Shown here: positions 6,401-21,436 of the stretch, in pieces
How positions within the stretch are numbered: position 1 is the first letter of the stretch
Layout of the letters: every line of letters begins with the position of its first letter
From: Chitinophagales bacterium
GTDB taxonomy: Bacteria > Bacteroidota > Bacteroidia > Chitinophagales > UBA10324
Reading direction: 5' to 3'
Length of the DNA: 56,554 nt
Assembly: GCA_013816805.1 (NCBI GenBank)
Contig: JACDDS010000020.1
Span: 1-56,554, forward strand
Position numbers and translations under genes: made by a program
Notes under the pieces: model-generated
The model's input: only the letters and a program-made list of their open reading frames with translations
The model's database searches: none
What the model was told of the DNA's origin: nothing

Positions 6401-6510
6401 AATTCCCGCACGCCAAGAGATTTAAATCCTATAATTCCAAAAATGACGATCACCAGCGACATTACTATCGCGAGCACCGGACGATGGATACTTAATGTGG
6501 GTAGGCTCAT
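3415..6510 (-). CDS. RND (HAE1-type) multidrug efflux pump, inner membrane permease
   Basis: The 1031-residue length is that of AcrB/MexB-type proton-driven pumps. The N-terminal start (SLPTLSIHRPVLAIVMSLVIVIFGIIGF) is the first transmembrane helix. The proton-relay Asp pair lies in GLVVDDGIVVTEN of TM4, and the C-terminal half has the repeated membrane bundle (MIMLIGLVTKNGILIVEFANQ). Two large periplasmic loops (PN1/PN2, PC1/PC2) are of normal length. It lies four bases after the adaptor gene and overlaps the tolC-like gene, so the three parts of the pump are co-transcribed. No lesion is seen and the gene looks functional. The drug or metabolite substrate is unknown. Confidence 0.95.
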   Translation of the reverse strand: MSLPTLSIHRPVLAIVMSLVIVIFGIIGFKSLGVREFPAIDPPMITVNTNYKGANAAVIESQITEPLEKAINGIQGIRSISSTSSQGSSIINVEFNLGADLETAANDVRDKVSQTVRVLPQDIDGLPSVTKADANADAILTLTVQSDTRNILDLSDYAENVIAERLQTIPGVSSIQIWGQKRYAMRLWLDPNKLAAYGLTLLDVQNALHKQNVDLPGGKIEGYHTELNVNTHGQLLSTNDFENLILKTNGTQTVKLTDVGHAELGAENEETILKQSGIPMVGLALVPQPGANYIDISNEFYKRMGQLKQELPKDLEVNVALDNTQFIRNSVSEVSETIAIALVLVILIIFLFFREWIIAFRPLIDIPVSLIGAFFIMWVMDFSINILTLLAIVLATGLVVDDGIVVTENIFKRIEKGMKPIEAAIEGSNEILFAVLSTSLTLVVVFMPVIFLEGFVGRLFREFGVVLAGAVVISAFVSLSLTPMLNAYLVKKSRKHSWFYRKTEPFFESMNSTYERILRSFLKMRWMALVITAVALAIAAGFFYYLPSELAPLDDRSYVRLSVTAPEGSSYESMEHYMDQVTQFINDSVSEKQILLTIVAPGFTGNSAVNSAAGRIGFVSPDQRSRTQDQISNYLQSKLGKLNNAKVFSVQQQTIQVGRSSGLPVQFVIQAPNFDKLKESVPKFLQAVQSNPIFQGTDVNLKFNKPQLDITIDRARAASLGVAVSDVAQTMQLAYSSLLFGYFEKNNNQYQVIGQVPRENRDQPVDLKSLYVRNNNGQLIQLDNVVDVKEESSPPAIYHYNRYVSATISAGLIPGKTIGDGIKEMNKISSQVLDKSYSTALTGPARDYAESSSNLAFTFMLALILVYLVLAAQFESFVDPLIIMFTVPLAVAGALLSLWYFNQTLNIFSEIGMIMLIGLVTKNGILIVEFANQLREKGLNKMNAIRQASVMRLRPIMMTTLATIFGALPIAAALGSGATSRMGMGIVVMGGLFISLVFTLLVIPAMYSYLSRTKKVVAPATVKHVEEPVEA

Positions 6511-6513
6511 ACG

Positions 6514-7569
6514 CTACTGCACCTTCTTTAATTTAACTTTCATCTTATTTTTCAAAAATAAGATGCCTGAAGTAATTACGGTATCGCGGGGATGGAGACC
6601 GCTTGTGATTTGTACAGCCGTATCATTTCGTATCCCAATCTGCACCGGCACGCTAAAGGCAGTATCCATTCTTGCCACGTAGACTTGCTGTCCGTTTAAC
6701 ACAGGGATTAATGCCTGTGTTGGAATCAGGATCGCCTCAGGATCCGTTCCAAGGTCAAGCGTTATGTTAGCAAAGCTTCCCGGCATAAGCGAGCCATCAT
6801 TATCACACAATGCACGAACGGTAAGCGTCCGCGTATCGGTATTGATGCCCGGATTTATTACATACACTTTTCCACTATATTGTTTGGTGCTGCCCTGAAT
6901 CGTAAATGTCAGACGGGTACCTACTTTTATTTGCGGGGCAAACTTTTCAGGCAAATCAAACTGCACTTTAATCGGATTAAGCTGGTATAACGTTGCAATC
7001 ACCGTAGTGGTGCTTACAAAAGCGCCGGAGCTTACATAGCGCACTCCTATTACACCGTTAAATGGTGCCCGTATTTCACTGTTATCCAGCTCAGCCTTCG
7101 TGAAATTGATATCTGCCTGTGCAGATTTAACGCTCAAGCTGGTAGCATTGTACTCATCTTCATTTACGGCATTCAGCTTATAAAGCTGTTCTTCACGTGC
7201 AAGGTTGTTTTGAGCTACTTCCAGGGTAGCTTTCTGCTTCTCTAATGTTGCCTGCAGGTTCGCATTGTTCAGCTTTACCAGAAGGTCGCCTTTATGCACT
7301 ATGTCGCCTTCTTTAAAATAGATCCCGGTTATCATACCATTGAGCTGTGGCTGCAGGTTCACCGACTCGTTCGCTTCCAGTGATCCGCTCACTAATGCAA
7401 TATTATTCATTACCTGCGGCCTTACCACAAGCGCATCTACTGCCTGAACCGCGGACTTTTTAGGCCCCGAAGCAGGATCTGTTGTTGTGCTTTTCAGAAA
7501 AAGAACTTTGATAAGGACCAATCCTATAATAATTGCCACTACCCAGATAAGCCCCCGGTATCTTTTCAT
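6514..7569 (-). CDS. Efflux RND transporter periplasmic adaptor (membrane fusion protein)
   Basis: This 351-residue protein has an N-terminal membrane anchor (about residues 5-25). The lipoyl/hairpin region follows, with GMITGIYFKEGDIVHKGDLL and an alpha-hairpin containing LEVAQNNLAREEQLYKLNAV, then a beta-barrel domain (RAPFNGVIGVRYVSSGAFV). This is the HlyD/AcrA family order. The adaptor bridges the RND pump and the TolC channel in the periplasm. It begins five bases after the marR stop and ends four bases before the pump start, so all four genes form one transcription unit. The start codon is ATG at 7567-7569. Confidence 0.93.
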   Translation of the reverse strand: MKRYRGLIWVVAIIIGLVLIKVLFLKSTTTDPASGPKKSAVQAVDALVVRPQVMNNIALVSGSLEANESVNLQPQLNGMITGIYFKEGDIVHKGDLLVKLNNANLQATLEKQKATLEVAQNNLAREEQLYKLNAVNEDEYNATSLSVKSAQADINFTKAELDNSEIRAPFNGVIGVRYVSSGAFVSTTTVIATLYQLNPIKVQFDLPEKFAPQIKVGTRLTFTIQGSTKQYSGKVYVINPGINTDTRTLTVRALCDNDGSLMPGSFANITLDLGTDPEAILIPTQALIPVLNGQQVYVARMDTAFSVPVQIGIRNDTAVQITSGLHPRDTVITSGILFLKNKMKVKLKKVQ

Positions 7570-7574
7570 TTGTG

Positions 7575-8072
7575 TCAGGAATATTGTTTCGAATTAATTT
7601 TAGATACTTTTTTTCGCCTCACATTTATTATCAAATCCCTGGAGGGCAAAGCTTTTAAATTTAAATACATCTGCTGCAGTACGTTCATAAATATACCCCA
7701 GTCACCCTTGCTTACCTGGCTGCTACAATATTCATTTAGTTCTTTTACCGCTCCGTGGATTTCCTTCATTCTGCGGGCTGCCTTTTCTGTTAACCGTATG
7801 CGATGTTTCCTTTTATCATTTTTATCCGATTCTCTTATCACATAGCCGTGGCTGGTAAGATAATTAAGGATGCGCACCATAGCGGCCTTATCTACTCCTA
7901 ACTGGTCTGCAATCTCCTGCTGCGAGCTGCGCGGGTATTCATTCTCAATCATGATCAGGGCGCTGAAGTACCGCTCAATATCCAGTTGATCCAGCTTGCT
8001 GTTTAATGCGCCCAAATAGAGGTGAGCATTTCGCCATAGCAAACGGGCAACAGGTAATTGGTTTGGGGTCAT
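7575..8072 (-). CDS. MarR-family transcriptional regulator of the efflux operon
   Basis: The 165-residue protein has the MarR winged-helix pattern: dimerisation helices, then SSQQEIADQLGVDKAAMVRILNYL as the helix-turn-helix (about residues 48-71), and the wing ESDKNDKRKHRIRLTEKA (about 81-98). MarR proteins normally repress their own operon and release DNA when they bind a phenolic or drug ligand. Being the first gene of the pump operon, it very probably regulates the pump. A TTAGTTG / CAACTAA inverted repeat lies 18-38 bases upstream of its start and is a good operator candidate. The C-terminus is rich in Lys and Arg. Confidence 0.9.
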   Translation of the reverse strand: MTPNQLPVARLLWRNAHLYLGALNSKLDQLDIERYFSALIMIENEYPRSSQQEIADQLGVDKAAMVRILNYLTSHGYVIRESDKNDKRKHRIRLTEKAARRMKEIHGAVKELNEYCSSQVSKGDWGIFMNVLQQMYLNLKALPSRDLIINVRRKKVSKINSKQYS

Positions 8073-8089
8073 TAATTGTTGAAGTTAAA

Positions 8090-8110
8090 TTAGTTGATTG
8101 CAACAACTAA
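8090..8110 (-). promoter_or_regulatory. Candidate MarR operator upstream of the efflux operon
   Basis: A perfect inverted repeat, TTAGTTG at 8090-8096 and CAACTAA at 8104-8110, is separated by seven bases. It lies 18-38 bases upstream of the regulator's ATG, where promoter and operator should be. Size and half-site spacing fit MarR-type dimers. That MarR binds here is inference from position and symmetry. Confidence 0.55.
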
Positions 8111-8176
8111 CAGTAAATGCTTTAAATGGACCTTTTGTTCAAAAAAAGTTGTTTTTTATTTCACCGCTGTGGTGAG

Positions 8177-8959
8177 TTACCTCTTAAAGCGAATATCTTT
8201 TTTAATTTTCTCAATGTCTTTTTTGAGCTGCTGTAAACTGGAAGCAAGACCCTGGTCTTTCGGTTCAAATTCAGCAGTAAAGTAATATTCCATTATAAAA
8301 ATCTCAATAACTTCTTTTACAGATATTTTCTGCGGAGGATAAGCAGCATTATCGTATTCCAGAACAATTTTTTTATCATCACCGGTAAAAGAAATGCGAT
8401 GAATTATAGTATCTTGATTTTTACTTCGAAGCAAAACCACATAGATTTTTTTCTCTACAATCTCTTCTGGTAAAATTTTTCTGCAAATAATCCAGCTATT
8501 CCAATTAAGGGTGGGTTTCATGAAATCATCCGCTACCTGTACCATAACATATTCTCCGCTTCGGTGTATAATTTCTGATATGGTGAAAGAGGGAAAACTT
8601 TTATAGAATTCGTTGTCTTGTTTTGTTAGCCATTGCGATACTGCCTTTGCATTTAGAACATAAATTTGTGATGCAGTTTCATATTTTTCAGAATCTTCCA
8701 GTACTAATTGATCGCTGGTTGTTGGAAAAGATTCGAAAGGTTTCCCCTTACCTGTAAGAAGCCAATTAGCATTTAGGTCTTCAAACCTGTTTGTAAGATC
8801 GGAAATAATTTCAAAGGAGGGATTATTTTTTGGATCACGAATTAATCGCTGGAGTTTCTCTGAATGACTATAGCCCAGCGCTCGTGATAATTCGTGGATA
8901 TTCTTATACCCCTTTTTGCGCATCACCAATAATAATCTTTCCGAAAAACTTATTTTCAA
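8177..8959 (-). CDS. XRE helix-turn-helix regulator with a degenerate S24 (LexA/CI-like) domain
   Basis: The 260-residue protein has an N-terminal helix-turn-helix (about residues 5-60, NIHELSRALGYSHSEKLQRLI) and a C-terminal domain with the S24 peptidase layout (about 130-225). In S24 enzymes the nucleophile sits in GDSM. Here the segment is ADDFMKPTL, so Ser is replaced by Phe146. The catalytic Lys, usually in ..LVKRI, is His187 in TIIHRIS. Self-cleavage is therefore unlikely, and the protein may be a stable repressor or ligand sensor. A Lys-rich coiled-coil tail (about 236-260) follows. The start is TTG at 8957-8959, since no ATG precedes the helix-turn-helix. Two direct repeats TGTTTGTATA lie just upstream. 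It is divergent from the giant Rhs gene. Confidence 0.8.
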   Translation of the reverse strand: MKISFSERLLLVMRKKGYKNIHELSRALGYSHSEKLQRLIRDPKNNPSFEIISDLTNRFEDLNANWLLTGKGKPFESFPTTSDQLVLEDSEKYETASQIYVLNAKAVSQWLTKQDNEFYKSFPSFTISEIIHRSGEYVMVQVADDFMKPTLNWNSWIICRKILPEEIVEKKIYVVLLRSKNQDTIIHRISFTGDDKKIVLEYDNAAYPPQKISVKEVIEIFIMEYYFTAEFEPKDQGLASSLQQLKKDIEKIKKDIRFKR

Positions 8960-9193: not shown

Positions 9194-12100
9194 ATGAAAA
9201 GATATACTACCCTCGTTTTCATTCTAGTTAATTCTTATTTTTTAAACGGTCAATCCACCGATGGATTCTTTCCCATTAACCAGGACATTATGCCACCAAG
9301 CCCTAATGCGGCTTCTGTGGCAAAGGTTTCCGAAATACCGGTAAGCTTATATACTGGCATACCTGATATTTCTATTCCTTTATATGAAGCTAAAGGTAGA
9401 AGCCTCTCCGTTCCTATTTCTCTATCTTATCATGCAAGCGGACTAAAGGTGGATGAGATAGCAAGCTGGGTAGGTGCAGGGTGGGCACTAAATGCAGGGG
9501 GACAAATTACAAGAGTGATTCACGGTTTTGCGGATGAAAGCACGGGAACATATGCTGGCTTCGAATCTTTGGCATCTTCTATTCCCTTGTTCAATTTTAC
9601 CGATTATCCAACAATGAAATCATATGCAGAAGGGAAATATGACGGTGAGCCCGACGAATATTTTTACAATTTCGGAGGAAAATCTGGCTCCTTTATGATA
9701 GGTAATGATGGAGTCTGGAATACAATGCCCTATGACAATATTAAAATTGAGCGTAAAAGTCTCAGTGGTTCAAAATATTTTGTAATTACTGCCGAAGACG
9801 GCATAGTATATTATTTTGGATATAGAAAAAATTCTACTTCATCGTATATTGATGGTATTGAAAGCAGCACCAATGAAAGCAGTTGCGGAGATTCCAACAA
9901 TCCTACCTGGCCTACAACCTGGAATTTAACACGTATTGAATTACCTACCTCAGCAGAATTTATTGATTTTGAATATGCAGATTACGAAATGGAATACTCC
10001 ACAGGAACTATGGAGACGAAATATTTTTCCATAGATGCGATGGGTGAGTTTGGGGATATTTGCACTAATCAGCAAGATTTAAATTGTACAAACAGGATGT
10101 ACGTATTTGGAAAAAAGGTTTCAAGAATTAATTTTTCAAATGGTTATATTACATTTAATGATAAAAGTAATTTCATAAGAGAAGATTTAACAAATCTTGA
10201 TGCAGGAAATATTGGATACCCTTTGGGGAACATTAAAATATATCTAACCAGTCAATTGGTAAAATCTTATGATCTTGACTATTCATATTATTATAAATCG
10301 AATGTTGCAACAAGATTAAAGCTATTATCCATAACCGAAAAAGGAAAAGATGTAACAGCTATTGGTCAGCCTTATAAATTTGATTATGAAGCAACAACAT
10401 TGCCACCCCCTAATTACAATACGACAGATAACTCCGCTAAAGGTCAAGACCACTGGGGATTTTATAATGGCGTTACAGACAATTCAACTTTAATTCCCCC
10501 GGCATATGAGCCAATTACTCAAACTAGCTTCAGTGGTGCGGATCGTGAACCTCATTGGCCTTACACTCAAGCTGGAATTCTTACTAAAATTACTTATCCA
10601 ACCCTGGGTTATACATCTTTTACTTATGAACCTAACTATTATGGTTATAATGCAAACTTATCGCTTATAAGTAATCCCATAACAGAAAATGTAACTTATA
10701 AAGCAAATGCTAAATACCCCGGGAAAAATAAAGCCGATGTAGTTGAGGACTCGAAATCTTTTACACTGGCAGCAGACACAGATTTAATTGTAACCTATAG
10801 CAGTAGCGCCTGTGATAACTGCCAGGAAATAGAGACTAGTTATAATATCCAAAATGTAAAGACATTAGAATATATAAACTTACCATCATCCGGCGGAATC
10901 ATAAAGTTAAAGAAGGGAGATTATCAGTTATATGCATCAGCATTTTGTACATGTGAATCCGCTAATGCCTGGATCAGCATCGCATACGATTCAATTACTG
11001 GCTACAATAAATCTAAACAAGGTGGAGGATTACGAATTAAAACCATCGTTCAAAGTGATGGGGACGGAGACCATTCAAATGATATAATTAAGAATTATTC
11101 TTATAGTATATCAACCGAATCAGATAGACCAAGTGGTGTAAATTTCTCAACACCTGTTTATTCATATAATTACAATAAAATCAGGCCAATTCCATCCCAT
11201 GGAGTTAATGAGGGTGGTGAAACTCTTTGTCAGTATCTGGTACGAACTCCCTGCAGCCAAACTGTTATGGGAACATCAAAAGGGGGTTATGTGGGTTACC
11301 AAGAAGTAAAAGTCGCCGAGGGTGATCAGACTAACAATAATGGTTGGAGTATTAATAAATATAGTATGGTGGGAGTTAATAACCCCTACTCTTATCCATT
11401 TACTCCTTTAACCAATTTAGAAAATGAAAAAGGTTTATTAATTGAAAATGCAGTATATGGTAATAATGGAAATATTTTAACAAAGCTTAAGAATGAATAT
11501 TACACTGACAGGTCGAATAATCGAACCATAGTTTATGGACTGAAAATAGGTTATGTCAACGAGTGCATAGATAAGGACGGATTAGATTATGATCTTTATA
11601 AGGGGGCAACCTATAATAATATTTCTGAATGGATTTATCTTAACAAATCCACTGAAACCACTTACGATTCAGTAGATTCCACCAAATCTATTTCAAAAGT
11701 AACTCAGTACTACTATGACAATCCTGCTCACCTTCAGCCAACCAGGATTGTAACCACCCGTTCAAATGGCATTACAGAAACGCAGGTAATGAAATATCCA
11801 AAAGATTATAATGTGACCGATAGTTATTCCGGCAGTAATTCCATGTTAAAGGCTATTGCTCAAATGGATGTGCAGCATATGGACAACAACATTATTGAAA
11901 AATATAACACGATCACTAAGAATAATTACTCTGTGTTTCAGGGAGATCCGAATCTTGTCACGAACCAGGCAAATATAATTGGTGGATCTTTCACTTATTC
12001 AGCAAATAATCCGCAACAGAAAGTAATAAATCCTTTTGCAACTGAATCTGTCATCAGCGGTTCCCTCTCAAATTACCGGCTTTTCAAAAATTATGTTGTC

Positions 12101-15100
12101 CGGGATACTGTTTTACTTCTTGACCTGGATGCGCCTCTTTCTACTTCTTTCTTTACTGTTTCCAACTATGATGGTTCTAAATTTATCAGGGATACAAGAT
12201 ATCGGGGAATAATGGTTAATGACTTGTATGACGATTCTATCCAGCTTACCATGTTTCATCGCCCATATGATATACGCAGCTCTGTAGTATATGATTACCC
12301 ATCAGGTAAGGTGGCTGTTATTGCGAAAAACGCTGATCAATCTTTAATAGCATATGCTGGTTTTGAAGGTAATAACCTGGGCGGATGGGACTATCCATCT
12401 TCCGGAGTTTCTCTTGTTGGATTTCAGGGAATCAATACTACTGCTACCGGCACTCATTTTTACCAGCTGAGCTCTTCCCGTACCTTCCAAAAGAAAAATC
12501 TGCCCGCAGGAACATATGTGGTTAGTTACTGGTACAAAGGTGCTCCATCGCTAACAGTTGGAACGATTCAAAAAACCATTACAGGAGAATCTGTTAATGG
12601 CTTTACCTATAAGGAGTATGTAATAAAATTAACTGCAACGACGAATGTAACCATTACTGGTACCACCAATGACTTCATCGATGAAGTACGACTTTATCCT
12701 TCTAATGCAGTTATGACTTCATATGCCTATTTACCGTCCCGAAACCTTTCTGAAAGCTGTGATGAAAACAACTACATAATCCATCATGAATATGACAACT
12801 TTGACCGCTTAAATTATTCTGCCGATCATTACTTGAATGGACTTTCCTATTTGGATTATCACTATAAGGATCCCAACAATTCATCGGATTACAATTTTAT
12901 CCGTAATGAAATAGCTCATTCAGAAGGCCAAAATAAATCAAGTCTTACAGCAGGTAATCTCTCATCAGGCCTTGCTCACCGTCATCTTGAATTCTTTGAC
13001 GGATTAGGAAGATCGATACAATCTGTAGCAGTTAAAGAAAGCCCTAAATCTAAAGATATTGTGATTCCGCGAGTATATGATCAGTATGGCAGAGAAACGA
13101 AAAAATACTCCTCTTATACTACTTCTTCTTATAGTGGCGCCTTTAAACCAACAGCCATAGCCGATCAGGCAAACTTTTACCTTACATCTTCTGATATTGC
13201 TGCTACCTCTTATCCCAATTCAGAGACCTCTTTCGAATCTTCCCCGCTTAACAGGCCTCTTATACAGGCTAACCCGGGAGAAACATGGAAGATGGGAGGT
13301 CGTAACATCACCTATTCCTACCGTTCTAATGGAAACAACGAAATACGGCAATGGATTAATACAAATGGAACCTGGGCTGGAAGTAAATTTTTTGGTTCAG
13401 GTTTATTTTATGTGAATCAAATAACTGATGAGATCGGCAATCAGCATTTCACCTTTAAGGATAAAAATGGCTTGCTTGTTTTAGAAGCTAACCAGAAACC
13501 TAACCCGAATGATATTAACCCGCATAAAGTTATTACTGCCAGCTACATTAATGAAAATGACTTTGCTTTGACCTATTATGTCTACGACGATATGCTTCGG
13601 CTGATTATGGTCATTTCTCCGGCTGCAGTGGATTTTATGGCAGATAAAATGGATTATACTTTAAAAACTGATGTGCTTAATAAATGGGTCTTTCAATATC
13701 AATACAATAAGCGGGGGTTGGTTTCGGCAAAAAAAATTCCAGCTCAGGATTGGACCTACATGGATTACGATCAGCTCGATCGGATAGCCTTAACTCAGGA
13801 TCCAAATCTTCGAACATCAAACAAATGGATTTTCCAGAAATATGATGAATTGGGACATCCAATTATTAATGGACTTGCAACTATTAGTAGCAAATCAAAC
13901 ATTGATTTACAAAATACGATGTGGTCCACAAACGCTGTTTTATACGAATCACGTATCGGCCCTTCCGATTGGTGCACTACAAATGATGGCTATACTCACA
14001 ACGTATATCCGACATCCTGCTCCGAAGATTTATTACTTAACTACTTTAATGATTACGATTTTGACGGTAATGGTTCCGATGATTTTATACCTATCTCATC
14101 GGACATTGCACGATCTAAAAATAAGTTAACAGGTACTTTTGTTGAGGTTCTAAATACGACTCCATCTCAATTTGTGAAGCAAGCCAATTTCTATGATTAC
14201 CGCTACCGCATAATAGAAACAGATGGACTTAATGAAAGGGATAGAAGTGATCAGACATTGAATACTTATGATTTTGCAGGAAACATTTTAACTTCTGTTA
14301 GAAATCTTTCTGTTTCACATCTCATGGGAACTTTATCGATTACTAACAGACAAACATTTGATAATGCAGACCGTCTTATTGATACTTATATGCAGGTAGA
14401 TGCAGCTCCGGAAATCTGGCTCGCTGATTTGGCCTACAATGAAATAGACCAGGTAAAGCAACGCAACCTTGAGAATTACATGGCTGGCATTGATGACCGT
14501 CAGTCGGATACGCACAGGGAGTCTACTCAGTATATTGATTATAAATATAATACCCGCGGATGGCTTACCGATATTAATGATATTACTACGGCTTCTTCCC
14601 TTAACGGTGATTATTTTGCAATGAAATTGCATTACGACGATGGAAACAGTTCGTTAGGTGCATCCTCGCAGTATACAGGAAATATTTCCTGGGCTGAATG
14701 GCGTAACTCCAGCGATTCAGTTAAGCGTCAATACGGATATCAATATGATCAGTTAGACCGGTTGACCAAGGCAAAGTATACTTCTTACAACCCTAAAGAA
14801 ACTAAGGTGGACGATGATTTATTCACGGTCAGCAACCTGAAATATGATGCTAATGGAAATATAAATGCTATGAAAGTAAAAGGAGTGATAAGTAAAGTTA
14901 AAAACGCTTATACATATGGTGTAGCCGATGATCTTACCTATTCTTACGATGGAAATAAGCTAACAAAAGTAGTTGATAAAGGAACGGGTGAATGGAGTAA
15001 TGGCCTGGATTTTCGTGGAACTGGAAATACCTATAACTATGATGCCAATGCGAACATGACCAATGATCCGAACAAGGGTATTTCCGTTACCTACAATTAT

Positions 15101-16942
15101 TTGAATCTTCCTGAATCCATAACCAAAACTTCTACAGGCGATAATTTAAAAGTAAGCTACGATGCCGGAGGAAACAAGTGGCGGGAAGTTACTACAATAG
15201 CCGGCACGAAAGATTCGACACTCTATTTTGGTGGCATTATTTATGAAAAAGGCGTACCTAAGAAAATATTAAACAGTGATGGGTATTTAGTGAAGGACAG
15301 TGCAGGCAACTGGAACTCTTACTATTACATTAAAGACCATCTTGGTAACATCCGTACGGTATTTAAAGGCATAGAGATGGTCTATACCAATGCGCCGCTC
15401 ACCATGGAAACAAACATAGATGAAGAAGGTAATTATCCGAAATATCATAATGTTGCTTCTACACGTAATAACCTTGAGCGATTTCAGGGGATCAGTAGTG
15501 CAGAAATACATAACGCACAAGGTCCATATACAGATGCCCCCATTCATGCACGTGACTCAGTGAAAATCAGTGTATATTATTACTGGCAGAAGAATGCGCA
15601 AAAGCCACAGCAACCACCAAAGAATCCCAATAATTTTTTGCCTCTTATTCAATTGCAGACGCTTCCTGATATTCTTTCACAACAACGTATAGAATCAGGC
15701 AGGCAACACAGCCGGTCCACCTTCGGTATGCAACTTAATATCATTGGATTGTTTAATTATTTACACGATAAGCACCATCAGCAAAGAGATATTGAAGCTC
15801 CTGAATCTGCACCAGATGCTTATGCCTTGCTTCAGTTACAAGACAGTTCTAACAATGTGGTGCAGGAGTGGAAATATAAGAGTGACAGCTCGGATAAATG
15901 GATACACTTAAGCGACTCCATGAAAATTATCGTTCCCGATTCCACTATGAAATATCATCTTCACATGGAGCTGGTGAACAACAGTGATGAAAATGTCTGG
16001 TACGACACCTTGAACCTGCGTATTGGTACGCCAACTACTCCTGTTATTCAGGAGAACAGCTACTACCCTTTTGGAAATATGATCGATAAATTGTGCTGGC
16101 AGACAACCGGGGAGGATACTTCAGCGTATAGATATAACGGTAAGGAGTGGTATAATCCATTTGGATTAGACTGGCTGGATTACGGAGCCCGCTGGTACGA
16201 TCCTCAAGTGGGGAGGTGGTGGAGTGTTGATCCTCTCGCAGAGAAGTTTCTGGGATGGAGCCCGTTTACCTACGGGAATGATAACCCGATTGGAAATATT
16301 GATCCCGATGGAATGGCAGCGGACGGGGATTATTATGGTAAAAATGGAAAATATTTAGGCAGTGATGGAATAAACGATAATAGAGTTTACACAGTGAATA
16401 CTACAACTATCGCAAACTCTAATGTTCCTTCTGTATTTTTACAGTCACAAATCAATTATGTGGGGCAATCAACTGGGTTTGAGTTATCATTCACTGGAAA
16501 TGCAAATGCGGAAAATTCCCAACAGGCCGATGGAACAGTAAATGTATATCAAAACGTAAGTAACGGAAGCCAATTTACCCGCATGAGTTTAGGTGCTGTT
16601 GGAGGCCCTTTTGGAAATGGAGCGCCACCCAATGGGGATTACACTGTAGATGACCCACGTCTAAGAACAGAATCCGGATTTACGAGAGACGATTTTGGTT
16701 TTAGTTTTAATCTGAATCCTCAATTTGAAACCCAACGAACACTCTTACGAATCCATCCAGATGGGAATACTTCGGGAACATTGGGCTGCATAGGATTACA
16801 ATGTACTGGCACTCAAGGAAAATCCTTCTATAATTTATTGAGTAATGAAGTAAATCGAAATGGTGCAATGAACTTAAATATTAATATTACAGACAATCCG
16901 AATAATCAAGGCGGTGAAGATGTTCCAAAAATCAACGAATAA
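9194..16942 (+). CDS. Giant secreted Rhs/YD-repeat protein with a polymorphic, LD-transpeptidase-like C-terminal toxin domain
   Basis: The 2582-residue protein begins with a signal peptide (hydrophobic run, then NGQ at about 18-20). The N-terminal Bacteroidota Rhs start is next (SYHASGLKVDEIASWVGAGW). YD-type repeats (YDQLDRL, YDANGNI, YNYDANANM) form the shell, and the Rhs-associated core ends with LDYGARWYDPQVGRWWSVDP to NIDPDG at 2370-2373. As in other polymorphic toxins, the roughly 209 residues after this are the variable payload. That payload contains PPNGDYTVDD and then RIHPDGNTSGTLGCIGL, with His2521 and Cys2532, the His...Gly-Cys pattern of L,D-transpeptidase / Tlde1-like peptidoglycan enzymes. 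I infer a cell-wall-targeting toxin. No T6SS or T9SS signal is visible, so delivery is unknown. The stop overlaps the next start (TAATG). Confidence 0.85.
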   Translation: MKRYTTLVFILVNSYFLNGQSTDGFFPINQDIMPPSPNAASVAKVSEIPVSLYTGIPDISIPLYEAKGRSLSVPISLSYHASGLKVDEIASWVGAGWALNAGGQITRVIHGFADESTGTYAGFESLASSIPLFNFTDYPTMKSYAEGKYDGEPDEYFYNFGGKSGSFMIGNDGVWNTMPYDNIKIERKSLSGSKYFVITAEDGIVYYFGYRKNSTSSYIDGIESSTNESSCGDSNNPTWPTTWNLTRIELPTSAEFIDFEYADYEMEYSTGTMETKYFSIDAMGEFGDICTNQQDLNCTNRMYVFGKKVSRINFSNGYITFNDKSNFIREDLTNLDAGNIGYPLGNIKIYLTSQLVKSYDLDYSYYYKSNVATRLKLLSITEKGKDVTAIGQPYKFDYEATTLPPPNYNTTDNSAKGQDHWGFYNGVTDNSTLIPPAYEPITQTSFSGADREPHWPYTQAGILTKITYPTLGYTSFTYEPNYYGYNANLSLISNPITENVTYKANAKYPGKNKADVVEDSKSFTLAADTDLIVTYSSSACDNCQEIETSYNIQNVKTLEYINLPSSGGIIKLKKGDYQLYASAFCTCESANAWISIAYDSITGYNKSKQGGGLRIKTIVQSDGDGDHSNDIIKNYSYSISTESDRPSGVNFSTPVYSYNYNKIRPIPSHGVNEGGETLCQYLVRTPCSQTVMGTSKGGYVGYQEVKVAEGDQTNNNGWSINKYSMVGVNNPYSYPFTPLTNLENEKGLLIENAVYGNNGNILTKLKNEYYTDRSNNRTIVYGLKIGYVNECIDKDGLDYDLYKGATYNNISEWIYLNKSTETTYDSVDSTKSISKVTQYYYDNPAHLQPTRIVTTRSNGITETQVMKYPKDYNVTDSYSGSNSMLKAIAQMDVQHMDNNIIEKYNTITKNNYSVFQGDPNLVTNQANIIGGSFTYSANNPQQKVINPFATESVISGSLSNYRLFKNYVVRDTVLLLDLDAPLSTSFFTVSNYDGSKFIRDTRYRGIMVNDLYDDSIQLTMFHRPYDIRSSVVYDYPSGKVAVIAKNADQSLIAYAGFEGNNLGGWDYPSSGVSLVGFQGINTTATGTHFYQLSSSRTFQKKNLPAGTYVVSYWYKGAPSLTVGTIQKTITGESVNGFTYKEYVIKLTATTNVTITGTTNDFIDEVRLYPSNAVMTSYAYLPSRNLSESCDENNYIIHHEYDNFDRLNYSADHYLNGLSYLDYHYKDPNNSSDYNFIRNEIAHSEGQNKSSLTAGNLSSGLAHRHLEFFDGLGRSIQSVAVKESPKSKDIVIPRVYDQYGRETKKYSSYTTSSYSGAFKPTAIADQANFYLTSSDIAATSYPNSETSFESSPLNRPLIQANPGETWKMGGRNITYSYRSNGNNEIRQWINTNGTWAGSKFFGSGLFYVNQITDEIGNQHFTFKDKNGLLVLEANQKPNPNDINPHKVITASYINENDFALTYYVYDDMLRLIMVISPAAVDFMADKMDYTLKTDVLNKWVFQYQYNKRGLVSAKKIPAQDWTYMDYDQLDRIALTQDPNLRTSNKWIFQKYDELGHPIINGLATISSKSNIDLQNTMWSTNAVLYESRIGPSDWCTTNDGYTHNVYPTSCSEDLLLNYFNDYDFDGNGSDDFIPISSDIARSKNKLTGTFVEVLNTTPSQFVKQANFYDYRYRIIETDGLNERDRSDQTLNTYDFAGNILTSVRNLSVSHLMGTLSITNRQTFDNADRLIDTYMQVDAAPEIWLADLAYNEIDQVKQRNLENYMAGIDDRQSDTHRESTQYIDYKYNTRGWLTDINDITTASSLNGDYFAMKLHYDDGNSSLGASSQYTGNISWAEWRNSSDSVKRQYGYQYDQLDRLTKAKYTSYNPKETKVDDDLFTVSNLKYDANGNINAMKVKGVISKVKNAYTYGVADDLTYSYDGNKLTKVVDKGTGEWSNGLDFRGTGNTYNYDANANMTNDPNKGISVTYNYLNLPESITKTSTGDNLKVSYDAGGNKWREVTTIAGTKDSTLYFGGIIYEKGVPKKILNSDGYLVKDSAGNWNSYYYIKDHLGNIRTVFKGIEMVYTNAPLTMETNIDEEGNYPKYHNVASTRNNLERFQGISSAEIHNAQGPYTDAPIHARDSVKISVYYYWQKNAQKPQQPPKNPNNFLPLIQLQTLPDILSQQRIESGRQHSRSTFGMQLNIIGLFNYLHDKHHQQRDIEAPESAPDAYALLQLQDSSNNVVQEWKYKSDSSDKWIHLSDSMKIIVPDSTMKYHLHMELVNNSDENVWYDTLNLRIGTPTTPVIQENSYYPFGNMIDKLCWQTTGEDTSAYRYNGKEWYNPFGLDWLDYGARWYDPQVGRWWSVDPLAEKFLGWSPFTYGNDNPIGNIDPDGMAADGDYYGKNGKYLGSDGINDNRVYTVNTTTIANSNVPSVFLQSQINYVGQSTGFELSFTGNANAENSQQADGTVNVYQNVSNGSQFTRMSLGAVGGPFGNGAPPNGDYTVDDPRLRTESGFTRDDFGFSFNLNPQFETQRTLLRIHPDGNTSGTLGCIGLQCTGTQGKSFYNLLSNEVNRNGAMNLNINITDNPNNQGGEDVPKINE

Positions 16943-17568
16943 TGAAAATAGCAATCCTACTCTTTATACAACTTGCAGGAACTATATTATTCCAAGCATG
17001 TGATAAATCTTTTAAATCGGACAACAGAGTTAATACTGGAATTATATCTATTACTTCTGACATACATTCTTTTATGCCAGATACTTCTATAAACGGATTA
17101 CTCTTTTTAAATAATCCAGCCTCTATTAAAAATGGCTTTGGAGATATTATGTCATTGCTGGAAAAAGAAAAAGACTATCCCGATTTATATCTATTAGACA
17201 GCACAAAGAAAGAATATTTACGAATGGTCTTATTTCCAGGCAGTAGTAGGAACAGCATAAGTCAATTTGAAGTAGGATACTATGCAGACCTGCCAGCAGC
17301 TACTAAAATCACTACCTCTCGTTTTCTTTCCTTTTATACAGAAAGCCAGTTAAAATTAGGAATATCAAAAGAGCAGTCAATTCAGATCAAAGAATCGGAT
17401 TATAAAGAGGAAAAAGGAAAGAATAACCAAATTATTATTAGATATGTTTTGAATGATTTTAATAAGTCTGCTTTTTTAAAAAGATACAATATGCCCGTTT
17501 ATTTTGCGGAATATTGGTTCAAAGAAAATAAGCTTATTAAATATTGGTTTGGCTTTGAATATCCGTGA
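16942..17568 (+). CDS. Lipoprotein, proposed immunity protein of the Rhs toxin
   Basis: This 208-residue protein matches no family I recognise. The N-terminus is a lipoprotein signal with the lipobox FQAC (Cys20, followed by Asp), so it is exported and lipid-anchored. Its ATG overlaps the Rhs stop by one base (TAATG), so it is translationally coupled to the toxin gene. In polymorphic toxin loci the gene directly after the toxin encodes its immunity protein. A periplasm-facing lipoprotein is the right place to block an enzyme attacking peptidoglycan. The rest is a soluble alpha/beta-looking domain with a charged stretch (KESDYKEEKGKNNQ). Function is inference from position and export. Confidence 0.7.
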   Translation: MKIAILLFIQLAGTILFQACDKSFKSDNRVNTGIISITSDIHSFMPDTSINGLLFLNNPASIKNGFGDIMSLLEKEKDYPDLYLLDSTKKEYLRMVLFPGSSRNSISQFEVGYYADLPAATKITTSRFLSFYTESQLKLGISKEQSIQIKESDYKEEKGKNNQIIIRYVLNDFNKSAFLKRYNMPVYFAEYWFKENKLIKYWFGFEYP

Positions 17569-17584
17569 TAACAGAATTTGAGAA

Positions 17585-17603
17585 ACCAGCATCCCCTTTG
17601 CTG
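17585..17603 (+). terminator. Small hairpin after the Rhs-immunity pair
   Basis: CCAGCA at 17585-17590 pairs with TGCTGG at 17598-17603 over a seven-base loop, followed by CCTTTAGGTTT. It lies 17 bases after the lipoprotein stop. It is a weak candidate terminator because the T run is interrupted. It also overlaps the end of the antisense dehydrogenase remnant's open frame. Confidence 0.3.
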
Positions 17604-17614
17604 GCCTTTAGGTT

Positions 17615-17851
17615 TGCAGCCCCATGTAAAATACCGAGGTCGGTTCCGCAAATAGTGGTCTTTACTATTTTGACTACTGCATCAGTAGATTTTATAATGG
17701 TAGGGATAGGTATATTTTTCAATTCAATAATGCCGGGTCCACCATATATAAGTCCTTTCATTCCCGCCCTTGTGATGCCCGGCTTTAATATTTCTTCTAA
17801 TTCAATTTCTATTGGTTCATTAGGAAACAAACCTTGATCTGCGGTGTTCAT
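17615..17851 (-). pseudogene. N-terminal stub of a zinc-dependent alcohol dehydrogenase
   Basis: On the minus strand, residues from Met31 (MKGLIYGGPGIIELKNIPIP) to CGTDLGILHGA match the N-terminal GroES-like domain of zinc-dependent medium-chain alcohol dehydrogenases. The Cys of CGTDL is the catalytic zinc ligand. Homology stops after about 50 residues, and the frame then runs into unrelated sequence at the 3' end of the Rhs immunity gene. The NAD-binding domain is missing. The natural start is probably ATG at 17759-17761; the 30 upstream residues do not resemble the family. The stub marks a deletion or insertion junction next to the toxin locus. Confidence 0.7.
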
Positions 17852-18580: not shown

Positions 18581-21436
18581 ATGGCAACAAAAGACACTGC
18601 AAATAATGAAATAGCCAGCCTTGTCGAGCGTTTTGAGGAGCAATTTGATTCCTATAAAAGGGCGGAATATAATGAAACACTTGCAAGACATGACTTCATT
18701 GATCCATTTTTTAAAGCCCTGGGCTGGGACATTAATAATGAAAACGGTTATGCTGAAAGTTATCGTGAGGTAATTCATGAGGACAGAGTAAAAGTTGGAA
18801 AGGCAACCAAAGCCCCGGACTATTCTTTTCGTTTGGTTGGAGGCAAGCGACTTTTCTTTGTAGAAGCAAAGAAGCCGAGTGTGTTTGTCAAAGGAGAAAT
18901 TATACCTGCTTATCAGGTGCGAAGATATGGCTGGAGTGCAAAGCTTCCTATCAGCATCATCACCGACTTTGAGGAATTTGCCGTTTATGATTGCACCAGG
19001 AAACCAAACCCGACAGACAAAGCATCTGTAGCACGAATAAAATATTTAACTTATCAGGATTACCTGAAAGAGTTTGATTTCATTTGGGAAACTTTCAGCA
19101 AAGAGCGGGTACTGAAAGGCAGCTTTGACAAGTTCATAACAAGCAATGCAGGCAAAAGAGGAACGGCAACGGTTGACAAAGAATTTTTGCAATCCCTTGA
19201 TAGTTGGAGAACCTACCTTGCAACTTCAATAAGCTGGAACAACAAAAACCTTGACGAGGAAGAAATAAATTTTGTTGTTCAACAAACCATTGACAGAATT
19301 ATTTTCCTGCGAATTGCAGAGGACAGAGATGTTGAGCAATACGGAAACTTGCAACAAGCAATTAAGCAAGGCAACTTTTATCAAAATCTTTTCTATCAGT
19401 TTCAGCAAGCAGACGACAAATACAATTCGGGTTTATTTGATTTCAGGAAAGACAAAATCAGCAAAACACTTTCGGTTGACAACAAGGTTTTAAAAACCAT
19501 CATCAACGAATTGTATTATCCCGAAAGCCCTTACGAGTTTTCGGTTTTGTCGGTAGAGATTTTAGGAAGTGCATACGAACAGTTTCTCGGAAAGCAAATA
19601 AAAATTGACAAAGCACATCGTGCCCACATTGAAGAAAAACCCGAAGTAAGAAAAGCAGGAGGCGTTTATTACACTCCGCAATATATAGTTGAATACATTG
19701 TAAAAAACACAGTCGGCAAACTCACAGAAAACAAAACACCGAAAGAGATAAGAAAAATAAAAATAGTTGACCCCGCCTGCGGCAGTGGCAGCTTTCTTAT
19801 CGGTGCTTATCAGTATTTGTTGGATTGGCATCGTAATTATTATCACGAACGTCATGCTGAACTCGTTTCAGCATCTCTCAATCAGGGACAGATTCCGAAA
19901 CGGGTTCGGAATGACGACAAGTTGCTTACACCCGAAGGCAACCTGACAACAGCAGAGAAGAAAAGAATTCTGCTCAACAATATTTTCGGAGTTGACATTG
20001 ATGTAAACGCAGTTGAAGTAACCAAGTTGAGTTTGCTTCTCAAATGTTTGGAAGGCGAAACCGAAGCAAGCATTGCCTCACAATTGAAACTGTTTAATGA
20101 AAGAATTTTGCCAACTCTTGATAACAACATCAAAGATGGAAACAGTTTAGTTGATATTGATTTATACAACAGCCAGCTTGATTTCGGTGAAGAGAAAAAA
20201 ATAAAACCGTTCAGTTGGCAGAAAGCATTTGTAGAAGTTTTCAAGCAAGGAGGTTTTGATGTTGTAATTGGAAATCCGCCATATGGAGCAACCCTTACTA
20301 AAGAAGTTGATACTTATTTAAGAAGTAAATATCAAGTAGCAAATTATCAATTGGATACTTACATTCTTTTTATTGAGAGAGGAAAAAGATTGCTAAACAA
20401 AAGCGGCTATTTGGGTTTTATAATTCCATCAGCTTGGGTTGCTTCAACTTATGACAACAAGTTGAGAAAGTATTTAACAGAAGACAACAGAATTGAAAAT
20501 TTTGTAATCACTCCAAAGCAAACATTCAAAGACGCATCCGTTGAAACTTGCATTTTGATTTTGTCCAACAATTTGCAAAGCAAAAGTTTTGAAGTTGAAA
20601 GATGGGATACGAAAGAGAAATCTTCTTACTCACTAAACACAAAAGAAATTCAATTCGAAAATTTTTATGTGTTTCCGGTTTACGCTGATTATAAAACAAA
20701 CAAGGTTGTTCACAAAATCAGAAAACAAAAGAATGTTCTCAATGATTTTGCTGATGTGAGTTGGGGAATAAAAGCGTATCAGAAGGGAAAGGGAAAGCCA
20801 CCCCAAAAGGGTTTTGAATCAGAAAGCAAAATTTATCATTCAGATAAAAGAAAAAATAAAACACATAAACCTTTGCTTGGAGGACGTGAGATAAACAGAT
20901 TTTGCCTAAACTGGAAAGGAGGTTTTATAGATTATGGTGATTGGCTTGCAGAACCGAGAAAGCCTCGTTGGTTTGAGGGAGAAAGAATTTTAGTTAGAGA
21001 AGTAACTGCAAATGGAATTGTCCAAGCAACCTTTGTTGAAGATGATTATGTGTTTTCAAATTCAGTTGACGGAATAAAAATGAGGTCAAAAGATTTGAGC
21101 ATAAAATTTTTGTTAGGACTTATCAATTCAAAACTCATTTCGTTTTATCACAGCAATACTTCTGCGAATGCCTTTAAAGGAGCATTTCCAAAAGTGTTAT
21201 TACAAGATTTGAGGGAGTTGCCAGTTCCAAAGCCAGATACGAAAACACAAAATGAAATAGAAAATTTGGTAAACCAACTTTTACAACTCAATCAGGAAAA
21301 AGCAGAAACAAACCTGCAAACCAAAGTTTCGCAACTTGACGGTAGGATTGAATATTGCGAAAGCAGAATAAACGAAATTGTTTATCAACTTTACGAGTTG
21401 ACACCTGATGAAATAAAAATTGTAGAAGGGAAATAA
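18581..21436 (+). CDS. Type IIG restriction-modification enzyme (single-chain nuclease and N6-adenine methyltransferase)
   Basis: The 951-residue protein combines a nuclease, methyltransferase and specificity domain. The N-terminal PD-(D/E)XK site is visible as Pro79-Asp80 and Glu95-Ala-Lys97 (APDYSF ... VEAKKP). SAM motif I is DPACGSGSF at 397-405, and the catalytic motif IV is NPPY at 565-568, typical of gamma-class adenine methyltransferases. A TaqI/Eco57I-like target recognition region occupies about 720-920. It methylates its own site and cuts unmethylated invading DNA, so no separate partner is needed. Residues about 424-446 (HAELVSASLNQGQIPKRVRN) do not belong to the family; they are encoded by a palindromic insert that kept the frame. 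Terminal-repeat elements on both sides suggest mobility. Confidence 0.88.
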   Translation: MATKDTANNEIASLVERFEEQFDSYKRAEYNETLARHDFIDPFFKALGWDINNENGYAESYREVIHEDRVKVGKATKAPDYSFRLVGGKRLFFVEAKKPSVFVKGEIIPAYQVRRYGWSAKLPISIITDFEEFAVYDCTRKPNPTDKASVARIKYLTYQDYLKEFDFIWETFSKERVLKGSFDKFITSNAGKRGTATVDKEFLQSLDSWRTYLATSISWNNKNLDEEEINFVVQQTIDRIIFLRIAEDRDVEQYGNLQQAIKQGNFYQNLFYQFQQADDKYNSGLFDFRKDKISKTLSVDNKVLKTIINELYYPESPYEFSVLSVEILGSAYEQFLGKQIKIDKAHRAHIEEKPEVRKAGGVYYTPQYIVEYIVKNTVGKLTENKTPKEIRKIKIVDPACGSGSFLIGAYQYLLDWHRNYYHERHAELVSASLNQGQIPKRVRNDDKLLTPEGNLTTAEKKRILLNNIFGVDIDVNAVEVTKLSLLLKCLEGETEASIASQLKLFNERILPTLDNNIKDGNSLVDIDLYNSQLDFGEEKKIKPFSWQKAFVEVFKQGGFDVVIGNPPYGATLTKEVDTYLRSKYQVANYQLDTYILFIERGKRLLNKSGYLGFIIPSAWVASTYDNKLRKYLTEDNRIENFVITPKQTFKDASVETCILILSNNLQSKSFEVERWDTKEKSSYSLNTKEIQFENFYVFPVYADYKTNKVVHKIRKQKNVLNDFADVSWGIKAYQKGKGKPPQKGFESESKIYHSDKRKNKTHKPLLGGREINRFCLNWKGGFIDYGDWLAEPRKPRWFEGERILVREVTANGIVQATFVEDDYVFSNSVDGIKMRSKDLSIKFLLGLINSKLISFYHSNTSANAFKGAFPKVLLQDLRELPVPKPDTKTQNEIENLVNQLLQLNQEKAETNLQTKVSQLDGRIEYCESRINEIVYQLYELTPDEIKIVEGK
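19850..19916. repeat. Palindromic element inserted in frame within the restriction-modification gene
   Basis: The arms at 19850-19874 and 19892-19916 are reverse complements at 20 of 25 positions, beginning CGTCAT and ending ATGACG, with a 17-base centre. It is translated as HAELVSASLNQGQIPKRVRNDD, a peptide commonly seen where extragenic palindromic repeats of this type are read through. It lies between methyltransferase motifs I and IV without breaking the frame, comparable in principle to Rickettsia palindromic elements. Confidence 0.7.

What the first reader, a model, noticed from the sequence alone, without database searches (positions are those of the whole stretch)
16304..17568. Rhs protein with an LD-transpeptidase-like toxin tip and a coupled lipoprotein immunity candidate
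After the Rhs core boundary (NIDPDG at residues 2370-2373) the 209-residue tip contains PPNGDYTV and RIHPDGNTSGTLGCIGL, with His2521 and Cys2532 in the His...Gly-Cys spacing of L,D-transpeptidase/Tlde1-type peptidoglycan enzymes. The next gene overlaps the stop (TAATG), encodes a lipoprotein (Cys20 after FQAC) and matches no family I know. A periplasmic lipoprotein is what a cell-wall-attacking toxin would need as immunity. The polymorphic-toxin gene order is established knowledge. The enzyme class and the pair's function are inference, and how the Sec-exported Rhs shell reaches a target cell is unexplained.
Basis: partly seen in the sequence, partly recalled or inferred. Interest (0 to 1): 0.78.

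Follow-up and report, generated by a model that had tools for sequence, protein, structure and literature searches.

The report
Rhs cell-wall enzyme toxin with immunity
A very large secreted bacterial protein ends in a small enzyme domain that looks built to tamper with rival bacteria's cell walls, and the next gene makes an exported partner that probably protects the producer; this type of weapon was predicted before, and its activity is still untested here.

Summary
In detail: coordinates, motifs, tip length and the TAATG overlap are as described. The tip's predicted structure (mean pLDDT 77; residues 61-200 have block means of 84-97) matches the L,D-transpeptidase fold: of 50 entries listed, the 25 with Z 7.0-12.1 are all of that class (Pgp2 12.1, Csd6 11.6, Tlde1a 9.1); the next scores 2.7. 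The window tip is below Pfam's cut-offs. A genome scan gave 24 related loci. In 18 of 24 the next gene is a homologue of the window's lipoprotein; 3 have a second exported family, 2 have other proteins, 1 (L029) has neither family. Toxin and partner diverge together (Mantel r 0.78). Of four phage relatives, two lie in proteins with a baseplate-injector domain (one just under cut-off) and one is fused to a lysozyme, pointing to peptidoglycan. Rhs-borne 'Tox-LD-peptidase' toxins with secreted immunities were predicted in 2012 (PMC3482391), so the kind is known; this subfamily, its partner family and the phage link are the additions. Activity, immunity and export route are untested.

The parts
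9194..16942 (+). Rhs protein, 2582 aa, with an N-terminal Sec-type signal sequence (MKRYTTLVFILVNSYFLNGQ), DUF6443 and Rhs core
   Evidence: the signal sequence is read by eye, plus a hydrophobicity score without control
12947..13324 (+). DUF6443 (residues 1252-1377)
   Evidence: Pfam PF20041, E 1.7e-35
16061..16315 (+). End of the Rhs-associated core, residues 2290-2374, with NIDPDG at 2368-2373; recalled as the usual auto-cleavage boundary of Rhs proteins
   Evidence: TIGR03696 E 1.2e-14; cleavage not tested
16313..16942 (+). Toxin tip, 209 aa after DPDG; residues 2374-2419 poorly modelled linker, about 2426-2566 the L,D-transpeptidase-fold domain, then an Asn-rich tail shared by many relatives
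16736..16789 (+). Catalytic motif R2515-x5-H2521-x7-T2529-x-G2531-C2532 (RTLLRIHPDGNTSGTLGC)
   Evidence: residue roles by analogy with Tlde1a R115/H121/S128/G130/C131 (PMC9638812, passages)
16942..17568 (+). Immunity candidate: exported lipoprotein of 208 aa (Cys20), ATG overlapping the toxin stop codon

Best explanation
An Rhs polymorphic toxin and its immunity gene. The Sec-exported Rhs protein ends, after the DPDG boundary, in a cysteine enzyme of the L,D-transpeptidase fold (R2515, H2521, T2529, G2531, C2532). Inferred: once in the periplasm of a neighbouring cell it attacks tetrapeptide stems of peptidoglycan through Cys2532, either trimming D-Ala4 (L,D-carboxypeptidase) or exchanging/crosslinking (L,D-transpeptidase), and so upsets wall homeostasis as Tlde1a does. 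The co-encoded, exported lipoprotein sits in the producer's periplasm and binds the domain to protect it. Shown here: gene anatomy, predicted fold, conserved motif, co-occurrence and co-divergence of the pair. Inferred: substrate, reaction, toxicity, immunity, direct binding. Unexplained: how the Rhs protein crosses the producer's outer membrane and enters a target.
For: Fold: of 50 entries listed, the 25 with Z 7.0 or more (7.0-12.1) are all of the L,D-transpeptidase class, next entry 2.7 (model; for Pgp2, Bd1075 and DpaA the class is recalled, not in the PDB title). Sequence: over 25 family members, Tlde1_dom (best E 9e-5), YkuD (3.3e-4) and DUF5675 (8.6e-4) are each hit by 7 members at E<=1. 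Motif: 25 of 25, with R at H-6, S/T at C-3 and G at C-1 as in Tlde1a. Pairing: 18 of 24 scanned loci carry the partner family; each of the 19 rows, window included, is recovered by a leave-one-out profile of mature parts at E 6.6e-23 or better, best of 200 shuffles 0.047; three of the loci (L019, L020, L021) are near-identical. 3 of 3 strong partner hits in 395 genomes adjoin the toxin. Co-divergence r 0.78, n 16; 0.75, n 14 after leaving out two close duplicates (L019, L033); p 0.0001 each with 9,999 permutations. Location: a hydrophobic N-terminus in 23 of 23 partners of both families, for starts chosen by me where several were possible (no control run). Peptidoglycan: of four phage relatives, L087 (over cut-off) and L089 (just under) have Phage_base_V, L088 is fused to Phage_lysozyme, E 2.4e-45, and L089 has an endolysin-type PHROG stretch (E 6e-11).
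Against: The window tip passes no Pfam cut-off (14.6 bits vs 30.1 for Tlde1_dom; no hit at E<=1 as 212 or 140 aa). Plain Foldseek gave no match at E<=0.001; the fold match rests on the second aligner. The canonical second His of (S/T)HGC is absent (T-L-G-C). The alignments behind the models are shallow (22 and 19 rows). 6 of 24 toxin loci do not carry this partner family. One of 19 partners matches Ntox23 at E 6.9e-4, which was not followed up. No toxicity, binding or activity data. No T6SS sheath (VipB) or phage-type sheath was found in the genome, so the injector route known for Tlde1 appears to be lacking here.
Confidence: 0.78

Rival explanations
1. The tip is an L,D-transpeptidase-fold domain that does not attack rivals but anchors or crosslinks the huge Rhs surface protein to the producer's own peptidoglycan; the lipoprotein is a chaperone or anchor.
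For: The Rhs proteins whose start is seen carry a Sec-type signal by eye (L019, L021, L024 and the window); the fold also serves in housekeeping enzymes (names, roles recalled).
Against: The partner changes family with the toxin clade and is more diverged than the enzyme in 117 of 120 pairs; the tip follows Rhs core ends in genomes of different phyla, in six loci with two or more Rhs ends in a row: the pattern of toxin and immunity rather than of a structural pair.
Confidence: 0.09
2. The tip has the fold but does not act on peptidoglycan: without the SHGC histidine it may act on another substrate, for example as an amidotransferase or acyltransferase on envelope proteins or lipids.
For: T-x-G-C (S-x-G-C in L028, L030) instead of (S/T)HGC in the family; H-P-D-G loop not seen in the nine YkuD proteins of related genomes, against which HHalign is weak (prob 2.2 percent).
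Against: Catalytic H, S/T and C are kept; phage relatives occur in injector-type proteins, one fused to a lysozyme; the best structural matches, Pgp2 and Csd6, are wall-trimming enzymes (role of Pgp2 recalled).
Confidence: 0.1
3. Decayed or inactive tip: a remnant kept by linkage.
For: Only one such locus was found in the genome.
Against: Open frame through 2582 codons, intact motif, intact overlapping partner gene.
Confidence: 0.03

Closest known systems
Tox-LD-peptidase polymorphic toxins (Zhang et al. 2012, PMC3482391; passages seen)
   Same: L,D-peptidase-fold domain in toxins with RHS repeats, with linked immunity genes, a subset secreted or membrane proteins; listed for Bacteroidetes among others
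   Different: The paper pairs them with Imm16 and Imm57; the window's partner matched no Pfam family at E<=1. Whether this HPDG subfamily was among the 2012 sequences could not be checked. The paper says Imm65 (with Tox-JAB-1) was the only lipoprotein immunity in its collection.
Tlde1a / Tldi1a, T6SS effector pair (PMC9638812; passages seen)
   Same: L,D-transpeptidase fold (7uma, Z 9.1, rmsd 3.0, 112 aligned); R at H-6, S/T at C-3, G-C; partner with a Sec signal
   Different: No T6SS sheath gene found in this genome; carried by a Sec-exported Rhs protein; T-L-G-C instead of (S/T)HGC; below the Tlde1_dom cut-off
Pgp2, Csd6, Bd1075 (PDB 6xj7, 4xzz, 7o21)
   Same: Best structural matches, Z 12.1, 11.6, 11.2 over 119-120 residues
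   Different: 13-18 percent identity; housekeeping wall-shape enzymes (Csd6 is called an LD-carboxypeptidase in PMC9638812; the others' roles are recalled)
DUF5675 (PF18925)
   Same: HHalign prob 77 percent, 54 columns from the P-x-G-x-Y to the H...GC region, against 11 Bacteroidota members
   Different: Members of the present family hit it only weakly (best E 8.6e-4); unknown function; open frames of 133-207 aa in the 11 places found, not Rhs-sized
TANFOR polymorphic toxins of Bacteroidota (PMC7073777; outline, passages and section 9)
   Same: Mostly signal-peptide toxins in T9SS-bearing Bacteroidota with immunity genes downstream
   Different: NCBIfam listed only Rhs_assc_core for the window protein at E<=1; an Rhs/DUF6443 shell instead

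Membership tests
Rhs polymorphic toxin | Rhs-associated core followed by a tip unrelated to the core | tested here: met
   TIGR03696 at 2290-2374, tip after 2373; related tips in the same open frame as an Rhs core end in 13 of 24 loci, by eye
Rhs polymorphic toxin | Immunity-type gene directly downstream | tested here: met
   Position and family co-occurrence: 18 of 24 loci
Rhs polymorphic toxin | The downstream gene protects against the tip | not testable with these tools
   Needs expression and binding experiments
L,D-transpeptidase fold | Predicted structure superposes on solved L,D-transpeptidases | tested here: met
   Z 7.0-12.1 for 25 entries, next 2.7
L,D-transpeptidase fold | Catalytic His and Cys close in space | tested here: inconclusive
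   No coordinates delivered; strand layout compatible
YkuD (PF03734) | Above the curated cut-off | tested here: not met
   Window tip has no YkuD hit at E<=1; 7 of 25 members hit at E<=1, best 3.3e-4
Canonical LDT motif (S/T)HGC | His two residues before Cys | tested here: not met
   L in the window; L, Q, K, E or A in the 25 tips
Tlde1 (PF10908) | Above the curated cut-off | tested here: not met
   14.6 vs 30.1 bits for the 131-aa tip
Tlde1 | Encoded with and delivered by a T6SS | tested here: not met
   No VipB match in the own genome (one profile, 3.57 Mb in 31 contigs)
Tox-LD-peptidase (2012) | LD-peptidase fold with H, S, C in an RHS toxin, plus a linked immunity-type gene | tested here: met
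   H2521, T2529 (S in L028, L030), C2532. Identity with the 2012 sequences not tested.
Tox-LD-peptidase (2012) | Immunity of family Imm16 or Imm57 | tested here: inconclusive
   Pfam scans gave neither for the window partner or for L031, L032, L034; those profiles were not searched by name
BLIP/BamE-like periplasmic inhibitor fold (partner protein) | Structural match | tested here: inconclusive
   Best 4ygt DUF4309 Z 8.6 (rmsd 4.4, 123 aligned), 4h0a 8.2, 9j9w 7.6; BLIP 4.9, BtiO 4.3, BamE 3.6; Foldseek none at E<=0.001
TANFOR toxin | N-terminal TANFOR domain | tested here: inconclusive
   Only TIGR03696 listed at E<=1; the TANFOR model was not searched by name

The most novel reading that the evidence does not exclude
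One peptidoglycan-attacking L,D-transpeptidase-fold module ([TS]xGC type) serves two kinds of weapon: the tip of Sec-exported Rhs toxins, guarded by swappable exported immunity families, and the cell-puncturing proteins of phages; in Bacteroidota without T6SS the Rhs form would reach rivals by a Sec-plus-outer-membrane route (T9SS or other) not yet shown for Rhs proteins.
Probability: 0.25. Interest if true: 0.68.

Novelty: new variant of a known kind. Interest (0 to 1): 0.48.

Why it matters
It turns an unannotated tip and an unannotated lipoprotein into a testable cell-wall toxin and immunity pair found in Bacteroidota, Pseudomonadota and a few MAGs of other phyla, gives a motif and profile by which such tips can be recognised, and names a partner family that Pfam does not hold as far as scanned. 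No T6SS sheath gene was found in the genome, but the T9SS protein SprA was, so it is a clean case in which to ask how Sec-exported Rhs toxins leave and reach their targets.

Tried and rejected
Single-sequence genome-contig scan with the 212-aa tip: 55 pattern matches, none confirmed; the later profile scan succeeded. Tip in 395 genomes by single sequence: 10 of 395 with a match at E<=0.01, of which own, L002, L003 and L004 cover the enzyme; the other six cover only the first 80 residues or fewer. Partner in 16 genomes of the family: own only. PDB sequence searches: the tip alone gave only a designed protein at E 0.24; the profiles gave designed beta-trefoils down to E 9.5e-6, which share only R-I-N-P-D-G-x-x-x-G-T repeats ending before the Cys; rejected as a repeat artefact. 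No PDB sequence match for the partner or for the whole Rhs protein at E<=0.001. No match of the tip in phage or plasmid records, of the partner in plasmid records, or of the L087 domain in phage records. NCBIfam over 25 members: one irrelevant hit at 0.13. PHROGs: phrog_14093, no function, 4 of 4 members, best E 0.037. Plain Foldseek was uninformative for both models. Tlde1_dom in 198 Bacteroidota genomes: one weak hit, none over the cut-off. YkuD in 20 genomes: none in the own genome, 12 of 20 with a match. HHalign sets: the third set (yk2, prob 10 percent) held one row, L085, translated out of frame with stops, so it is not used. Partner of L004 is not of the window's family but of the second family. 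Pfam on partners gave, for one member each of 19, Ntox23 (6.9e-4), CAP_assoc_N, TssO, BamE, BLIP and others; not followed up. L015's partner has a weak SH3_3 hit, 0.019.

Profile searches of 395 genomes: partner, 10 of 395 genomes at E<=0.01, three strong (E 5.7e-67 or better), the rest 3.4e-4 to 0.0078, counted as chance or signal-sequence matches without inspection. Toxin, 8 of 395, four strong (own, G012, G021, G255); of the four weak ones L051 (G023, 2e-4) does look like a distant relative when read (H...TSQGC after PGGEY), the other three show no such motif in an open frame. So 'three of three' and 'four' are counts of strong hits only.

Rows dropped before counts: L017 (partner cut short), L027 (toxin frame cut short) and L020 (not in A4) before the Mantel test; L027 and L029 before the tree. 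The tree has 7 starred of 23 inner branches and long branches for L035 and L088; only the split of phage and Rhs forms (95/99) and the second-immunity clade (96/97) are used.
Full report
Observation. Rhs identity is fixed by DUF6443 (E 1.7e-35) and Rhs_assc_core (E 1.2e-14, residues 2290-2374). Neither the 212-aa tip nor the lipoprotein matched Pfam or NCBIfam at E<=1.

Relatives. A search of 395 Bacteroidota genomes, own included, gave three relatives of the enzyme part besides itself (L002, L003, L004). A profile of these (A3) scanned against one genome for each of 84,980 species gave 24 loci, mostly Bacteroidota, also Psychrobacter, Rhizobacter, Roseateles, a gammaproteobacterial MAG, an Akkermansiaceae MAG, and MAGs labelled Rokubacteria and Armatimonadota (labels as in the records; binning not checked). 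L021 and L023 lie on contigs of the same length and at the same places as L003 and L002 and are taken as the same loci. In 13 of 24 the tip follows, in the same open frame, an Rhs core end of the type NPxxxxDPxG (L013, L016-L021, L023-L025, L031, L032, L034; by eye); in L027 it lies in another frame. Six loci (L013, L017, L018, L020, L025, L027) hold two or more such ends, as arrays of displaced Rhs tips do.

Enzyme. All 25 aligned tips share R-x5-H-x7/8-[TS]-x-G-C. The His part was a search pattern, so its conservation is partly by selection; T/S, G and C were not. Offsets agree with Tlde1a R115, H121, S128, G130, C131 (numbers from PMC9638812, passages), with one residue more between His and Ser/Thr. 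The histidine of the canonical (S/T)HGC is replaced by L, Q, K, E or A. Member by member, Pfam gives Tlde1_dom, YkuD and DUF5675 to 7 of 25 each at E<=1, best E 9e-5, 3.3e-4 and 8.6e-4. The AlphaFold2 model from 22 rows has block-mean pLDDT 84-97 over residues 61-200 and low values before 50 and after 200. VIA-align 2 on it lists 25 entries of the L,D-transpeptidase class with Z 7.0-12.1 and then drops to 2.7: Pgp2 12.1 (rmsd 2.3, 120 aligned), Csd6 11.6 (2.3, 119), Bd1075 11.2 (2.5, 120), LdtMt2 10.2 (2.8, 112), Tlde1a 9.1 (3.0, 112). Plain Foldseek had nothing at E<=0.001. I take the fold as established at model level. That Pgp2, Csd6 and Bd1075 head the list is a mild hint, no more, towards D-Ala4 trimming.

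Substrate. Independent support comes from phages. Four predicted viral contigs carry a relative, three of them found by all three scans, the fourth by the last. L087 and L089 have the baseplate-injector OB domain in the same protein (Phage_base_V, 25.9 and 23.0 bits, cut-off 23.8); in L088 the domain precedes a Phage_lysozyme domain (E 2.4e-45) next to a PAAR gene; L089 also has an endolysin-type PHROG stretch (phrog_873, E 6e-11); in L092 the domain is inside a 1115-aa protein with no Pfam hit. A domain carried on such proteins beside a lysozyme most likely works on peptidoglycan. This is inference from context.

Partner. In 18 of the 24 loci the next gene is a homologue of the window's lipoprotein; three of these (L019, L020, L021) are near-identical. 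Leave-one-out profiles of the mature parts recover each of the 19 rows at E 6.6e-23 or better, against 0.047 for the best of 200 shuffles; the second family and the partners of L015 and L035 do not match it (best E 23). The second family (L031, L032, L034, and L004) goes with one toxin clade (96/97). L015 and L035 have other proteins with signal sequences by eye. L029's toxin is cut at the contig start, and no frame of its 3,503 bases matches either family. In the 395 genomes the three strong partner hits (own, G012, G021) each adjoin the toxin and no strong orphan appeared (at most 8 or 10 candidates per genome are scored). Toxin and partner distances correlate (r 0.78, n 16; 0.75, n 14; p 0.0001 each), and the partner is the more diverged in 117 of 120 pairs. 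All 23 partners of both families have a hydrophobic N-terminus (no control run); 9 of 19 in the first family match a PS00013-like lipobox (pattern recalled), counting three with Cys at 14 that the script's own tally of 6 left out. So export is the rule and the lipid anchor is common but not needed. The partner's model (mean pLDDT 86) resembles DUF4309 (4ygt Z 8.6), the first part of a secreted cysteine-rich protein (4h0a 8.2) and an antifungal effector (9j9w 7.6), with BLIP, the T6SS immunity protein BtiO, OsmE and BamE lower (4.9-3.6); weak BamE and BLIP Pfam hits, one member each, point the same way, while another member hits Ntox23 at 6.9e-4. A BLIP/BamE-like inhibitor is a lead only.

Delivery. 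The Rhs protein has a Sec-type signal sequence by eye, as have the relatives whose start is seen (L019, L021, L024). The genome has SprA of the T9SS (2498.6 bits) but no VipB and no phage-type sheath match. One DUF6443 protein was found in the genome. T9SS export has been proposed, not shown, for TANFOR toxins (PMC7073777, section 9). The word DUF6443 occurs in no paper of the library, and a search for Rhs with T9SS, Flavobacterium and vesicles gave listings only, none opened.

What is known. Zhang et al. 2012 (PMC3482391; passages) predicted RHS-bearing Tox-LD-peptidase toxins, with H, S, C, in Bacteroidetes among others, immunity Imm16 and Imm57, a subset of immunities secreted or membrane proteins, acting by hydrolysing wall crosslinks. 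Tlde1 (PMC9638812, passages) is the tested T6SS counterpart. So the kind is known. New, as far as the keyword searches in the open-licence library show, are this HPDG/TxGC subfamily as such, its partner family, and the phage link; subscription papers and supplements were not searched.

Verdict.

Noticed in passing
L087:2452-3552, L088:1464-3464, L089:1882-3966, L092:1942-5289: Phage relatives of the toxin domain in injector-type or large proteins; in L088 before a Phage_lysozyme domain and beside a PAAR gene. L087 has a paralogous injector gene in tandem in which I see no such domain.
   Followed up: partly
L051 (G023): A distant relative without HPDG (LRIH...TSQGC after PGGEYTV), E 2e-4, read; its context was not studied.
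   Followed up: no
window 17537-17851 (-): Short ORF whose translation looks, by eye, like the N-terminal end of a zinc-type alcohol dehydrogenase (recalled); no Pfam match at E<=0.01. Possibly a decayed gene just behind the immunity gene.
   Followed up: partly
window 18581-21436 (+): Single 951-aa protein with HSDR_N, Eco57I/N6-methylase and TaqI_C specificity domains: probably a restriction-modification enzyme in one chain, next to the toxin locus.
   Followed up: no
window 3415-8959 (-): RND efflux pump (ACR_tran, HlyD) with a MarR regulator, then an S24 peptidase gene lying divergently in front of the Rhs gene.
   Followed up: no
own genome G000: No YkuD match in the own genome although 12 of 20 genomes in the set have one: the producer may lack a standard L,D-transpeptidase of its own.
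   Followed up: no
L031, L032, L034, L004 downstream genes: A second exported partner family with a (E/Q)NSA(D/S)E motif; may correspond to Imm57 of the 2012 survey (D, SE, C; beta- and gamma-proteobacteria), but no Pfam match to it.
   Followed up: partly
window 16890-16942 and relatives: Asn-rich tail after the enzyme domain (NPNNxG...NE) shared by many relatives, weakly modelled (pLDDT about 57), ending where the partner gene starts; may reflect the overlapping start signal or a functional tail.
   Followed up: no
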